Shown one piece after another: positions 21,719-25,872 of a stretch of DNA of 35,999 nt. The DNA comes from Chloroflexota bacterium (GTDB taxonomy: Bacteria; Chloroflexota; Dehalococcoidia; Lucifugimonadales; UBA3495). A program made the position numbers and the translations under genes. The stretch spans positions 12,302 through 48,300 of the forward strand of contig PAJQ01000022.1 in assembly GCA_002710215.1 (NCBI GenBank), given 5' to 3'. Within the stretch, counting starts at the first letter, position 1. Each line of letters begins with the position of its first letter. Under the pieces are notes generated by a model. That model did not search any database. It was not told the DNA's origin and saw only the letters and a program-made list of their open reading frames with translations.

Positions 21719-22798
21719 CTAATCGACGGAACTCACATTCTCCAAGTCTAATGGATAATATACCCTCGTACGGGTTTTACCTTCTACTCTTAGTACGCCC
21801 ACATTCACCATTTCGTTCAGATCCCGGGAGGCCGTCGCCGGGGAGACACCGGTGATTTCCATGTAGTCACCCCTGGTAATTTGCCCGGTCTGGACCGCAA
21901 AGGAGTAAGCATCCATGTGCCTCTCAGGCCAACCATTGTTTGCCCAAAATGATTGCGCTTGTCTCATCATTTGATACCAATTTCCGAGCCTATCTACTAG
22001 CTCTTGTAAATGGCGCAAAAGCGCGACCACAAAGAACTCTAGCCATGATGTTGCATCATAACCAGAGCTGAAACTAGTGACCAATGTATGTTCAATGGCC
22101 GCGACGTAATCCTGACGCACTGAAAAAAGATGGGCTTCCAAGGCCAACAACTTTCGAAAACCATATGGCGACCTCTGCAAGACCAGAGTAGATAGACCCC
22201 GGGCGGTCCTACCGTTTCCGTCCCAGAAAGGATGGATAGCTACGGTATGGATATGTGCTAACCCAGCTTTGATCACCGGGTGCACTTCGATTTGATAAGT
22301 CCGTAGCCAAAGCGCGAAGGAACGCATCAGCTCGGGGACGTCCCCCTGATTTGGAGGAGCATAATCGCCGATCTTGTTTTGTCCTCTCCTGTACACTCCC
22401 GGAGTTAGCAATTCAGCCTCTCCAGTCAGGAAATAACGATTTAATTGTCGAATGACTAACTCGTCAATCGGAATGTCCGGCTGGTCGCTGAGGAAATCGA
22501 CAAACTCGTAAGCTTGAAGTGCATTAATATTGGCCTGCTCATCCTTAGTGTAATTAACCGCAGTGCTCCGGTTTACCAGTCGGCCAACTGCTTCTTCATC
22601 AAGTGCAGCACCTTCGATTCTGGTGGTACCAGATGCCCTCTTGACATTGGCCAAACGCATTTGCCGTTGTAGCCAAACTTCATGCTTCGGCATCATTAAC
22701 ATATTGTCAATTAGCCACCTGTGGCTCTCGACGGTCTCAAGAGTCGTAGTAATCAGACTAGAGTTGGTATATTGCGGCGTAAATATTCTCTCATTCAT
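21719..22798 (-). CDS. Fic-domain AMP-transferase with N-terminal inhibitory helix and C-terminal winged helix
   Basis: 359 residues. The Fic motif is complete: HPFWDGNGRTAR at 189-200 (catalytic H189). The N-terminal region carries an inhibitory motif TTRIEG (E62) of the class II arrangement, predicted to keep adenylylation off by itself. Residues ~300-350 look like a winged helix (ITGVSPATASRDLNEMVNVG, then a wing), suggesting DNA binding and autoregulation. Base composition is clearly AT-richer than the neighbours and the start lies beside a very AT-rich segment with inverted repeats, a sign of acquisition. The target protein is unknown. Confidence 0.88.
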   Translation of the reverse strand: MNERIFTPQYTNSSLITTTLETVESHRWLIDNMLMMPKHEVWLQRQMRLANVKRASGTTRIEGAALDEEAVGRLVNRSTAVNYTKDEQANINALQAYEFVDFLSDQPDIPIDELVIRQLNRYFLTGEAELLTPGVYRRGQNKIGDYAPPNQGDVPELMRSFALWLRTYQIEVHPVIKAGLAHIHTVAIHPFWDGNGRTARGLSTLVLQRSPYGFRKLLALEAHLFSVRQDYVAAIEHTLVTSFSSGYDATSWLEFFVVALLRHLQELVDRLGNWYQMMRQAQSFWANNGWPERHMDAYSFAVQTGQITRGDYMEITGVSPATASRDLNEMVNVGVLRVEGKTRTRVYYPLDLENVSSVD

Positions 22799-22968: not shown

Positions 22969-22997
22969 TTGACAGTTGTTGACCTCTCAGGTAGACT
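22969..22997 (+). promoter_or_regulatory. Sigma70-type promoter of the sulfite reductase operon
   Basis: TTGACA (22969-22974), a 17-base spacer and TAGACT (22992-22997): a perfect -35 with optimal spacing and a 4/6 -10. The start of transcription would fall near 23003-23005, immediately before the leader peptide ATG at 23006, so the leader peptide may be translated leaderless. Confidence 0.65.
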
Positions 22998-23005
22998 TCT
23001 TTCCA

Positions 23006-23068
23006 ATGAGACCCATATCGATTAACTGCTGCATCTGTACCTGTCCCCCCACAGAGGGGGCAGGCTAG
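23006..23068 (+). CDS. Cysteine-rich leader peptide (attenuator)
   Basis: A 20-codon frame from ATG 23006 to TAG 23066-23068. Four of six consecutive codons are Cys (residues 8-13, CCICTC; codons TGC TGC ATC TGT ACC TGT at 23027-23044). The Cys codons run into the 5' arm of the first leader hairpin (23040-23050). It lies between the promoter and the reductase gene. Known polycysteine leader peptides control sulfur and cysteine genes in actinobacteria; a role as a sensor of charged tRNA-Cys is inferred here from composition and position. No Shine-Dalgarno is evident, so leaderless initiation is likely. Confidence 0.7.
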   Translation: MRPISINCCICTCPPTEGAG

Positions 23069-23132
23069 TCGTTCGTTCAGCGACATCGTCTTAATCGACA
23101 CCTGCGCCCACCAAGCACGCCGTTTGGTGGGC
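23040..23132 (+). promoter_or_regulatory. Transcription attenuator: competing hairpins before sulfite reductase
   Basis: Hairpin A: 23040-23050 (CCTG, bulged T, C run) pairs with 23056-23064 (GGGGGCAGG), about nine pairs. Alternative: the same GGGGGCAGG can pair with CCTGCGCCC at 23101-23109, eight of nine pairs. That would block the 5' arm (23106-23114) of the terminator. A small stem GTCG/CGAC lies between (23068-23071 with 23081-23084). A ribosome stalled at the Cys codons should open hairpin A, allow the alternative pairing and let transcription continue. A ribosome moving to the stop codon should mask GGGGGCAGG and allow termination. Folding energies were not computed. Confidence 0.65.
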
Positions 23133-23142
23133 TTTTTATTTT
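23106..23142 (+). terminator. Intrinsic terminator inside the sulfite reductase leader
   Basis: GCCCACCAA (23106-23114) pairs with TTGGTGGGC (23124-23132), nine perfect pairs, followed by TTTTTATTTT (23133-23142). It lies only eleven bases before the AGGAGG of the reductase gene. It has a U-tract only in the + direction. A strong terminator between a promoter and its gene is the mark of attenuation. Confidence 0.85.
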
Positions 23143-23163
23143 GCCAAATCGTAGGAGGCCACG

Positions 23164-25038
23164 TTGACAAGTCCGACCGGAGGAACCCAGGTAGTAAACC
23201 AGGAAAAGATTCACCAAGAGAGCATGGCGCTGGCCCCGTCTGCTCCAGGGATTATCCCTTTCATGGACGAAGAGATCGTCCGCCTGGAAGAGGAGTCCCA
23301 AAAGTTCCAGAGCGGTGAACTGGACAACGCCGAATTCACCCCTTTCCGGCTACGCCAGGGAGTCTACGGCCAGCGCCAAGCCGACGTTCAGATGATACGA
23401 GTCAAACTGCCCGGTGGGATTATCACCGCCGACGGTTTGGATATGTTTGGGGAGATCACCGAGCGGTATTCCCCTCTGCAAAAAGGCCACATCACCACAC
23501 GGGAGAACATCCAGATCCACCACATACCCCTGGACCAATGCCCAGAGGTTTTGCGTTTGCTGGCAGAGGTGGGGTTGAGCACCAGAGAAGCGTGCGGCAA
23601 CACCGTCAGAAATGTCATCAGCTCTCCTGGCGCAGGAATTTGCCCCGACGAAGTCTTCGACCCGACACCCTACCTGGCCGCCTACGTGAGGTTCGGCGTT
23701 CGGCATCCCATCACCCAGAACTTCCCTCGCAAGTTCAAGACGGCCTTCACCGGATGCGACTCCCATGACACCGTGGCCGCCGCCATCCAGGACCTGACCT
23801 TCGTCTCTCAGACCCGGCAGGTTGACGGCGTTACCCAGAGGGGATTCAGAATATTCGTGGGCGGCGGCACATCCATCATGCCCCGGCTGGCCAAACCCTT
23901 GTACGACTTCCTTCCTGAGGAGGACTACTTGCGGCTGAGTTTGGCCATCTGGACGGTCTTTAACAACGCCCAGATGTTGCGCAAGAACCGCATGATGGCC
24001 CGGCTCAAGGTTCTCATAGACCGAATCGGCCTGGATGAGTTCCGCGAGCAGGTTGAGGAAGAGCTGGAGAAGATAGGCCCCATCGACCCCAAACCTTTGA
24101 TGGAAGCCGAAGAGATCCAGAGAGAAACCGCGCCGACTGTGGAGCATCTCTCCTTCCCGGCCCTCAAACTCAACGGGTCCTCTAACAATGGTCACCACGG
24201 AGACGATGAGTTCAATCACTGGACGGAAACAAACGTTTCCGCGCAGAAGCAAGAAGGCTATTACCTGGTCTACGTCAAAATGACCCGTGGCGACATCACC
24301 GCAGCCCAGTTCCACGGTCTGGCGGACATTGTCCGCCGCTACACCGGCGGCCGCGCCCGAACCAACCAGGAACAGAACCTCGCCCTCCGCTGGGTCCCTG
24401 GCCAGTCATTAAAAGAAGTATGGCAAGCATTGAAAGCCATTGGCCTCTCCGATGCCGACGTCCACACCATCGCTGACGTTGTTTCCTGCCCCGGAACCGA
24501 CAGCTGCAAGCTGGGCATCACCTCGTCGATGGGCCTGTCCAAGGCCGTGACGGAGGATATGGCGGGCTGGAACGGTTTGATGGAGGACGAAGGAGTCCGA
24601 AAGATCCGCATCAAGATAAGCGGCTGCCCCAACGGCTGCGGGCTGCACCACATCGCCAATATAGGCTTCCACGGCGCGGCCGTTAAAGGCCCCGACGGCG
24701 ATCAGATCCCGGCCTACGAGCTGTTCCTAGGCGGCAACTACGGCGATAACCGGGTGGAAGACTCCAGCATCGGCACGCGGATTCCCAAGGTGAAAGTCCC
24801 CGCCAAGGCCGTTCCGGGTGTTATCAAAGAGATTACCACCTACTACAAAGAGAACCGCCAGAACCAGGAGAGCTTCAACAACTTCCTGGAAAGGGTGGGC
24901 ATCGCCCAGCTAACCGCCGTCGCCGCCCAAGCCCAGAGTATCACCGAGTCCACCGAAGCGGGTTCCGACCTTTACTTCGATTGGGAGCGGACCAACATCT
25001 ACAAGCTGGAGCGCGGTGAAGGTGAGTGCATGGTCTAG
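23164..25038 (+). CDS. Ferredoxin-type sulfite/nitrite reductase (siroheme, 4Fe-4S)
   Basis: 624 residues. The siroheme/4Fe-4S ligands are C442-x5-C448 (CPGTDSC) and C488-x3-C492 (CPNGC), and both ferredoxin-like half-domains are present. The TTG start at 23164 is chosen because AGGAGG (23153-23158) lies five bases before it; ATG 23224 would discard that site. The enzyme reduces sulfite to sulfide or nitrite to ammonium with six electrons, and sequence alone does not separate the two. The Cys-rich leader peptide favours assimilatory sulfite reduction for cysteine synthesis. A uroporphyrinogen-III synthase gene follows, matching the need for siroheme. Confidence 0.9.
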   Translation: MTSPTGGTQVVNQEKIHQESMALAPSAPGIIPFMDEEIVRLEEESQKFQSGELDNAEFTPFRLRQGVYGQRQADVQMIRVKLPGGIITADGLDMFGEITERYSPLQKGHITTRENIQIHHIPLDQCPEVLRLLAEVGLSTREACGNTVRNVISSPGAGICPDEVFDPTPYLAAYVRFGVRHPITQNFPRKFKTAFTGCDSHDTVAAAIQDLTFVSQTRQVDGVTQRGFRIFVGGGTSIMPRLAKPLYDFLPEEDYLRLSLAIWTVFNNAQMLRKNRMMARLKVLIDRIGLDEFREQVEEELEKIGPIDPKPLMEAEEIQRETAPTVEHLSFPALKLNGSSNNGHHGDDEFNHWTETNVSAQKQEGYYLVYVKMTRGDITAAQFHGLADIVRRYTGGRARTNQEQNLALRWVPGQSLKEVWQALKAIGLSDADVHTIADVVSCPGTDSCKLGITSSMGLSKAVTEDMAGWNGLMEDEGVRKIRIKISGCPNGCGLHHIANIGFHGAAVKGPDGDQIPAYELFLGGNYGDNRVEDSSIGTRIPKVKVPAKAVPGVIKEITTYYKENRQNQESFNNFLERVGIAQLTAVAAQAQSITESTEAGSDLYFDWERTNIYKLERGEGECMV

Positions 25039-25047
25039 GGTACGGGA

Positions 25048-25872
25048 GTGGCAGCCTCGCTAAGCGGCAAAGTCGTCGCCTTTTTGGAATCCCGCATGCA
25101 ATCGGAGATGGCGGGACTGATTGAACGCCATGGAGGCACACCCTACCCGGCCCCGGTCCTTCAGGAAGTCTATCTGAAGGACAGCCCTGAAGTGCGGCAA
25201 TTGATTCAGGATATCTGCGCCGAACTGGTCGATGTGGTGGTCCTGCTCACCGGAGTGGGCACGCAAGCCCTGGTCGAAACCGCTGCAGATATGGGCCTGG
25301 AGCAGGAATTTCTCCGGAGCCTGAACACCCGGACCATCATCGCCCGCAGCCCCAAGCCCGCCAGGGTCCTGCGCCATCACAAGATTCACATCGACGTCAT
25401 GCCCCCGGAACCCTACACCTCACAGGACCTGATCCAGGCCATACAGGATATGGACTTGTCCGAAAAAGAGGTGGCGGTGCAGGCATACGGCGGGCCCAAC
25501 ACCTTCCTCAGCCGTAGTTTGCGAGAAAGCGGCGCTAATGTTCAAGAGGTCACGCTGTATACCTGGGGACTTCCCGAGGATACGACACCGGTGGTGCGGC
25601 TGATCGACGATCTGGCCCTGGGAGCGATTGATGCCATGGCATTCACCAGCCAACCCCAGGTTGAAAACCTGCTGATCGTCGCCGCTCAGATGGGAAAGGA
25701 CGAATCCTTGAGGAAGAGTCTTGACCAGCCGTCGCTAGCGATCGCTTCCATAGGACCGGTATGCAGCCGGAAGCTGAGGGAGAAGAACATCAAGATCGAC
25801 GTGGAGCCGGAGCACGTTCACATGGGCAATTTGATAGTCGCCCTGGCTGAACACTTGGAGCCGGGCGATTAA
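25048..25872 (+). CDS. hemD: Uroporphyrinogen-III synthase (HemD family)
   Basis: 274 residues. GKVVAFLESRMQSEMAGLIERHGG is the N-terminal HEM4 start; FTSQPQVENLL and the following IASIGPVCSRKLRE segment are the C-terminal family motifs. The enzyme closes hydroxymethylbilane to uroporphyrinogen III, the branch point to siroheme and heme. The GTG at 25048 is the likely start, nine bases after the reductase stop. ATG 25096 would remove the first strand of the fold. Pairing with a siroheme reductase is functionally coherent, and it should share the upstream attenuator. Confidence 0.85.
   Translation: MAASLSGKVVAFLESRMQSEMAGLIERHGGTPYPAPVLQEVYLKDSPEVRQLIQDICAELVDVVVLLTGVGTQALVETAADMGLEQEFLRSLNTRTIIARSPKPARVLRHHKIHIDVMPPEPYTSQDLIQAIQDMDLSEKEVAVQAYGGPNTFLSRSLRESGANVQEVTLYTWGLPEDTTPVVRLIDDLALGAIDAMAFTSQPQVENLLIVAAQMGKDESLRKSLDQPSLAIASIGPVCSRKLREKNIKIDVEPEHVHMGNLIVALAEHLEPGD

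What the first reader, a model, noticed from the sequence alone, without database searches (positions are those of the whole stretch)
23006..23068. Cysteine-rich leader peptide before the sulfite reductase operon
Seen: a 20-codon frame with four Cys in six codons (CCICTC) lies directly between a sigma70-like promoter and a siroheme sulfite/nitrite reductase gene. Known: polycysteine leader peptides control cysteine and sulfur genes in actinobacteria, and the classical trp/his operons use the same logic. Inferred: the operon senses charged tRNA-Cys. I know of no described case in Chloroflexota-like genomes.
Basis: partly seen in the sequence, partly recalled or inferred. Interest (0 to 1): 0.85.

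Follow-up and report, generated by a model that had tools for sequence, protein, structure and literature searches.

The report
Cysteine-sensing attenuator before sulfite reductase
A tiny gene rich in cysteine codons sits at the very start of the message for a sulfite-reducing enzyme in deep-ocean SAR202 bacteria and, together with a conserved RNA stop signal, very probably lets the cell switch that enzyme on when it runs short of cysteine.

Summary
The leader ORF (23006-23068, MRPISINCCICTCPPTEGAG) has four Cys codons in six and starts 8 nt after TTGACA-17-TAGACT.

The window comes from a SAR202/Dehalococcoidia MAG. A rule blind to Cys (promoter, then a start codon 4-13 nt downstream) was run on 103 distinct orthologous upstream regions, mostly from the same order. 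It found ORFs in 80; 72 have at least 2 Cys in 6 codons (other frames 6 and 0; opposite strand 1 of 20 ORFs). Terminators follow in 69 of 80 (shuffled 1-3). Pairs 1:2, 2:3 and 3:4 fit better within a genome than when swapped between genomes; the control pair 1:3 does not. A second Cys attenuator precedes a MoeB/ThiF-cysteine synthase operon in the same genome and across its family.

Best reading: ribosome-mediated, Trp-type transcription attenuation responding to Cys-tRNA shortage, with a leader that probably starts leaderless. It is a new variant of a known kind: Cys attenuators are described or predicted in mycobacteria and Rhodobacterales; I found none for Chloroflexota. No expression evidence exists.

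The parts
22969..22997 (+). sigma-70-like promoter TTGACA-17-TAGACT; -10 ends 8 nt before the leader ATG
   Evidence: same architecture in orthologues, 62 of 80 with 8-9 nt between -10 and start codon
23006..23068 (+). leader ORF MRPISINCCICTCPPTEGAG, no Shine-Dalgarno, predicted leaderless
   Evidence: conserved as a Cys-rich short ORF in 72 of 80 promoter-defined orthologous leaders
23027..23044 (+). Cys codon cluster TGC TGC ATC TGT ACC TGT (codons 8, 9, 11, 13), the proposed sensor
   Evidence: core CxC kept while intervening codons vary
23040..23048 (+). region 1: 5' arm of hairpin 1:2 (CCUGUCCCC)
   Evidence: own-versus-swapped pairing test
23056..23064 (+). region 2: 3' arm of hairpin 1:2 and 5' arm of the antiterminator (GGGGGCAGG)
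23101..23109 (+). region 3: antiterminator 3' arm (CCUGC-G-CCC); its last 4 nt belong to the terminator 5' arm
   Evidence: fold of 23054-23121, with the ribosome placed at the last Cys codon, pairs it with region 2
23106..23142 (+). intrinsic terminator: 11-bp stem 23106-23132 plus U-rich tract
   Evidence: terminator at a similar place in 69 of 80 orthologous leaders versus 1-3 in shuffles
23153..23158 (+). Shine-Dalgarno AGGAGG of the reductase gene
23164..25038 (+). NirA-type siroheme reductase, read here as assimilatory sulfite reductase
25048..25872 (+). uroporphyrinogen-III synthase (HemD), siroheme supply, probably co-transcribed

Best explanation
A ribosome-mediated transcription attenuator that senses cysteine. 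Transcription starts at or within about 2 nt of the leader AUG (inferred from the spacing), so a ribosome starts on the 5' end without a Shine-Dalgarno site. When Cys-tRNA is plentiful, the ribosome runs through the Cys codons to the stop codon and covers region 2; the antiterminator (2:3) cannot form, the terminator (3:4) folds, and RNA polymerase stops before the sulfite reductase gene. When Cys-tRNA is short, the ribosome stalls at the last Cys codons and covers region 1; region 2 pairs with region 3, the base of the terminator is disrupted, and the reductase-hemD operon is transcribed. Without translation, hairpin 1:2 forms and termination is the default. Shown: the ORF, its conservation, the terminator, and co-variation of the three pairings. 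Inferred: transcription start, translation, stalling and readthrough.
For: Cys-blind rule: 72 of 80 ORFs have clustered Cys versus 6 and 0 in the other frames, mean 5.2 after shuffling their nucleotides and 1 of 20 on the opposite strand. Peptides diverge almost completely in other families of the order (MNAFQTYGGFTINCCCCRP, MTTTHIYKVCVCSNGP, MSINYSFNCCCSL) yet keep Cys codons close to the stop. Terminator of -13 kcal/mol or better in 69 of 80 leaders (shuffled 1-3, opposite strand 4), median 34 nt after the stop codon. Own-versus-swapped duplex energies: R1:R2 0/2000 permutations as low in both nirA sets; R2:R3 5/2000 and 55/2000; terminator 0/2000; control pair R1:R3 833/2000 and 162/2000. 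With the ribosome at the last Cys codon, 23054-23121 folds into GGG.GCAGG paired with CCUGC.CCC (-23.8 kcal/mol, z -2.4); with the ribosome at the stop codon it does not; without a ribosome hairpin 1:2 forms. A second leader (MTPIGYQITNNCTCPQT) with the same parts precedes a MoeB/ThiF-cysteine synthase operon in the same genome; family-wide, 27 of 27 promoter-defined leaders have clustered Cys and 27 of 27 have terminators.
Against: No RNA-seq, ribosome profiling or reporter data. In the window the antiterminator competes for only the lowest 4 bp of the 11-bp terminator, and at equilibrium, once the full terminator is made, the terminator wins, so the switch must be kinetic. The probability-based stall simulation over 98 leaders did not beat shuffled spacers (mean 0.80 against 0.81 for nirA). 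Stalling at the first Cys codon would leave hairpin 1:2 free, so only the later Cys codons can be regulatory in the simple model. The last Cys codons lie inside the hairpin, so part of their conservation could be structural. The permutation tests do not correct for relatedness. R2:R3 is uninformative in the cysM set because it does not vary (615/2000).
Confidence: 0.87

Rival explanations
1. The leader controls translation rather than transcription: slow decoding of Cys codons changes reinitiation or access to the reductase start site, as reported for mycobacterial polycysteine sORFs.
For: Leaderless start and Cys run resemble the mycobacterial case (PMC9031893, PMC4633059).
Against: A strong intrinsic terminator lies between leader and gene in 69 of 80 cases and its arms co-vary; the leader stop is about 95 nt from the reductase start here and up to 250 nt in others; the gene has its own AGGAGG that no predicted structure hides.
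Confidence: 0.07
2. The peptide itself is the functional product, for example a small metal- or redox-binding Cys peptide, or a sequence-specific arrest peptide acting through the CTCPP ending.
For: CxCPP endings recur within the family.
Against: Across the order the peptide varies in length (12-30 residues), Cys number (2-6) and all other residues; CPP is replaced by CRP, CGP, CSL, CMNDR and others. The distance to the terminator is kept better than the peptide.
Confidence: 0.04
3. Cys codons are a by-product of the RNA hairpin (UGU within CCUGUCC), and the conserved thing is only a terminator regulated by some RNA-binding factor or ligand.
For: The last Cys codons sit in the hairpin and use TGT almost exclusively within the family; the MFE is strongly below shuffles (z -3.85).
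Against: Upstream Cys codons lie outside the stem; order-level relatives keep Cys with unrelated nucleotide sequences; other frames show no comparable enrichment; no Rfam riboswitch or T-box matches.
Confidence: 0.02

Closest known systems
Ribosome-mediated transcription attenuators of the trp/his/leu type (enterobacteria)
   Same: leader peptide with codons for the pathway's end product, alternative 1:2, 2:3, 3:4 pairings, intrinsic terminator, biosynthetic operon downstream
   Different: senses Cys; no Shine-Dalgarno, predicted leaderless start; Chloroflexota; the antiterminator overlaps only the base of the terminator in the nirA leader of this window
uORFC-8-2 motif upstream of cysS in Rhodobacterales (PMC8632094)
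   Same: short ORF with two Cys codons inside a stem, followed by an intrinsic terminator; same proposed logic
   Different: controls cysteinyl-tRNA synthetase, in Alphaproteobacteria; here sulfite reductase/hemD and cysteine synthase operons; no Rfam family matches the window
Leaderless polycysteine short ORFs of mycobacteria (Canestrari et al. 2020, doi 10.1111/mmi.14498, paper not held; cited through PMC9031893 and PMC13236596)
   Same: leaderless Cys-rich short ORF upstream of cysteine/sulfur genes; cysteine response
   Different: mycobacterial mechanism is reported as translational attenuation; candidate actinobacterial cys leaders were described without obvious terminators (PMC1262725); here an intrinsic terminator and antiterminator are present
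T-box and S-box (SAM) leaders of cysteine and methionine genes in Firmicutes
   Same: transcription attenuation of sulfur amino-acid genes
   Different: no match to any Rfam family in the window at gathering thresholds; in the leader only a chance-level RybB match; sensing here is by translation of codons

Membership tests
Trp-type ribosome-mediated transcription attenuator | short leader ORF with clustered codons for the end product | tested here: met
Trp-type ribosome-mediated transcription attenuator | intrinsic terminator between leader ORF and first structural gene | tested here: met
Trp-type ribosome-mediated transcription attenuator | mutually exclusive 1:2, 2:3, 3:4 pairings | tested here: met
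   co-variation by swap test with negative control 1:3; folds of defined stall states; overlap of 2:3 with 3:4 is only 4 nt in this window, so exclusivity is partial
Trp-type ribosome-mediated transcription attenuator | operon makes the amino acid that is sensed | tested here: met
   siroheme reductase plus hemD; K at the position of tobacco NiR N226 and G at M175, as in mycobacterial NirA/SirA; second leader before cysteine synthase
Trp-type ribosome-mediated transcription attenuator | readthrough rises when the cognate aminoacyl-tRNA is scarce | not testable with these tools
   needs expression data
Mycobacterial leaderless polycysteine sORF | leaderless translation start | tested here: inconclusive
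   8-9 nt from -10 to start codon in 62 of 80 and no SD-like core between them in any of 80; transcription start not mapped
Mycobacterial leaderless polycysteine sORF | no intrinsic terminator, acts on translation | tested here: not met
   terminator in 69 of 80
Rfam families (T-box, SAM, other leaders) | covariance-model match | tested here: not met
uORFC-8-2 (Rhodobacterales cysS) | upstream of cysS with tandem Cys codons | tested here: not met
   downstream gene is a sulfite reductase; the uORFC-8-2 model itself was not available to search

The most novel reading that the evidence does not exclude
An order-wide, ancient cysteine attenuator of SAR202 and relatives in which leaderless initiation is part of the sensor: the ribosome loads on the 5' AUG as soon as it leaves the polymerase, coupling the two machines without a Shine-Dalgarno site. 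It would be the first Trp-type attenuator with a leaderless leader peptide, and the main cysteine regulator of a major dark-ocean lineage that appears to take up sulfur at the level of sulfite.
Probability: 0.45. Interest if true: 0.75.

Novelty: new variant of a known kind. Interest (0 to 1): 0.62.

Why it matters
It gives a regulatory logic for sulfur assimilation in SAR202, a very abundant uncultured deep-ocean lineage for which a 2017 survey reported no sulfite reductase (PMC5864207) and later work lists both cysI and nirA transcripts (PMC9416657). A Cys leader conserved over the order identifies the ambiguously annotated nitrite/sulfite reductase as an assimilatory sulfite reductase. It also extends ribosome-mediated attenuation to a phylum where I found none described, and joins two features, a leaderless start and an intrinsic-terminator switch, not reported together in the papers read. 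The short-ORF signature is simple enough to be used to predict cysteine-linked genes in other uncultured genomes.

Tried and rejected
Rfam scan of the window and the leader: nothing above threshold, so T-box and known riboswitches were dropped. Equilibrium stall simulation over 98 leaders: direction as expected for most, but shuffled spacers scored as well, so it is not used as evidence; the own-versus-swapped test replaced it. A long-range pairing of leader codons 5-7 with 23091-23098 seen in the minimum-energy fold does not recur outside the genus and was dropped. Search for further Cys leaders by promoter + CxC pattern in 49 family genomes: in the matches listed, only the nirA and cysM leaders recur clearly; other hits are tRNA promoters or do not read as Cys in frame. 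The cysM-type leader was looked for outside the family: 2 of 40 regions gave an ORF with clustered Cys, which also serves as a negative control for the rule. The nirA leader was looked for outside the order in 20 regions: found clearly only in L152, with a weak candidate in L062.

Full report
Where it is. The window lies in a 3.07-Mb MAG (76 contigs, 86% complete); the nearest named relatives of the reductase locus are SAR202-cluster/Dehalococcoidia MAGs. The reductase (624 aa) has two NIR_SIR repeats. NCBIfam places it between NirA, nitrite and sulfite reductases with no model above cut-off. It is followed 9 nt later by hemD. Upstream, on the other strand, is a Fic-domain gene (21719-22798).

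Anatomy. TTGACA-17-TAGACT (22969-22997), 8 nt, then ATG at 23006; Cys codons at 23027, 23030, 23036 and 23042; stop 23066-23068. The whole leader folds far below shuffles (z -3.85, 0 of 200) into a 9-bp hairpin (23040-23048 with 23056-23064) and an 11-bp terminator (23106-23132) followed by UUUUUAUUUU. The reductase has AGGAGG 5 nt before its TTG start.

Conservation of the frame. The reductase was used to collect orthologues in the family (50 genomes, all with a match), the order (175 of 250 at E 1e-60), GTDB contigs (35 loci) and the phylum (51 of 400). After removing near-duplicates 103 upstream regions remained. A rule that does not look at Cys was applied: a promoter-like pair of hexamers, then ATG/GTG 4-13 nt after the -10, ORF of 5-50 codons ending before the gene. 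It returned an ORF in 80 regions (20 on the opposite strand, 16.7 on average in shuffled sequence). Of these 80, 72 have at least two Cys within six codons and 50 at least three; the other two frames give 6 and 0, nucleotide shuffles of the ORFs 5.2 on average (maximum 11 in 200), the opposite strand 1, shuffled upstream regions 0.85. Reading against the family numbers, the leaders come from about 20 family-level groups of the order. Outside the order only L152 (MPGPHRTCACTCPQPP...) is clear, with a weak candidate in L062. Within genera the core Cys codons are kept while neighbouring codons change; the last two Cys codons are nearly always TGT and sit in the hairpin, so their third bases are probably fixed by structure as well.

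Leaderless start. The -10 to start-codon distance is 8-9 nt in 62 of 80 nirA leaders, and no SD-like core lies between -10 and start in any of 80. This predicts a 5' end within about two bases of the AUG. The transcription start has not been mapped. Leaderless genes have been predicted in some Chloroflexi genomes at about 5% of genes (PMC3160421).

Terminator and switch. A hairpin directly followed by a T-rich run, -13 kcal/mol or better, is found in 69 of 80 nirA and 27 of 27 cysM leaders, against 1-3 and 0-1 after shuffling and 4 and 2 on the opposite strand, with a median of 34 and 27 nt after the stop codon. Duplex energies between regions of the same genome were compared with swaps between genomes: R1:R2 own -13.3 against -11.8 kcal/mol in the family and -12.9 against -11.0 in the order (0 of 2000 permutations each); R2:R3 -12.1 against -11.1 (5/2000) and -13.1 against -12.2 (55/2000); terminator arms 0/2000; control R1:R3 833/2000 and 162/2000. 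These tests do not correct for relatedness; the control pair and the divergence of the order limit that concern. Alignments show two-sided changes in hairpin 1:2 and in the terminator. One leader of the second operon, L225, has A-U where the others have G-C in the 2:3 helix (my reading of the alignment).

States in the window. Ribosome with the last Cys codon in the A site: free RNA from 23054; up to the terminator loop the fold is GGG.GCAGG paired with CCUGC.CCC, -23.8 kcal/mol, z -2.4. Ribosome at the stop codon: region 2 is covered and only weak pairing remains (-5.8). No ribosome: hairpin 1:2 forms and the 2:3 helix is absent. With the whole terminator made, the terminator wins at equilibrium even in the stalled state, keeping the 5-bp part of 2:3, so the switch has to act during transcription. 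The overlap of 2:3 with the terminator is only the basal GCCC. Losing it would separate the stem from the U tract, which should impair termination (inference). A broader simulation was not discriminating and is not used.

A second leader. A pattern search for leaderless-type promoters in the same genome returned ten sites; two carry Cys leaders. The second, MTPIGYQITNNCTCPQT, precedes a ThiF/MoeB-type adenylyltransferase, with a cysteine synthase (...IGNTPTVELQNM...PTGSVKDR...) further downstream. Across the family, 27 of 30 loci have a promoter-defined leader, all 27 with clustered Cys and all 27 with a terminator whose 5' arm is CCUGCGC or a close variant in most. Outside the family it is essentially absent (2 of 40). 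The two operons fit one regulon: sulfite to sulfide, sulfide to cysteine.

Physiology. No PAPS/APS reductase family member (PF01507) was found in the genome, and only 2 of 48 family genomes have a strong match, so sulfur probably enters as sulfite. A 2017 survey reported no sulfite reductases in SAR202 and a single PAPS reductase (PMC5864207); a later study proposed that sulfite from methanesulfonate feeds cysteine synthesis in subcluster II (PMC9416657). In the alignment to solved structures, the query has Lys where the tobacco nitrite reductase rows have Asn and the 3vlx row has Lys, and Gly at the neighbouring variable position, as in mycobacterial NirA/SirA. From memory, these are the N226 and M175 positions that influence nitrite versus sulfite use; that is a lead, not a test. 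Together with the Cys leader it favours sulfite reductase.

Literature. Candidate actinobacterial cys leaders were described without obvious terminators (PMC1262725). Mycobacterial leaderless polycysteine sORFs are reported as cysteine-responsive attenuators of downstream translation (PMC9031893, PMC13236596; the primary paper is not held). A Rhodobacterales cysS motif with two Cys codons and a terminator was predicted in 2021 (PMC8632094). A 2010 survey knew leader-peptide systems only from Proteobacteria and Actinobacteria and added Firmicutes (PMC2965389). Searches for a Chloroflexota case found none, within a library that lacks most subscription journals.

Verdict. It works like a Trp-type attenuator and meets the sequence-testable features of that class. 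It is not a member of the mycobacterial class in mechanism, because it has a terminator.

Noticed in passing
L142 (G000:C6:9425-9467, - strand) and L201: Second Cys-leader attenuator (MTPIGYQITNNCTCPQT) before a ThiF/MoeB-cysteine synthase operon; conserved in the family, absent outside it.
   Followed up: yes
whole genome G000 and 48 family genomes: PAPS/APS reductase family PF01507 is missing in the window's genome and strong in only 2 of 48 family genomes, although the NirA-type reductase is nearly universal there; sulfur seems to be assimilated from sulfite.
   Followed up: partly
23164-25038: The reductase has Lys (residue 192) where tobacco nitrite reductase has Asn226 and Gly at the Met175 position, favouring sulfite over nitrite as substrate.
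   Followed up: partly
L077 and L079 (genus g14): Same attenuator design rebuilt with different sequence: CVCMCC codons, GUCCCU/AGGGAGG hairpin, and a CACCCCCC terminator arm that pairs with GGGAGGUG.
   Followed up: partly
L142, reverse complement, about 923-1385: An Rrf2-family regulator gene (my reading of the translation) lies just upstream of the second Cys leader; CymR, a cysteine regulator, belongs to the same family.
   Followed up: no
21719-22798 (-): Fic/DOC-domain protein with a C-terminal winged-helix-like match, divergent from the attenuator; sequence between 22799 and 22860 is strongly AT-rich.
   Followed up: no
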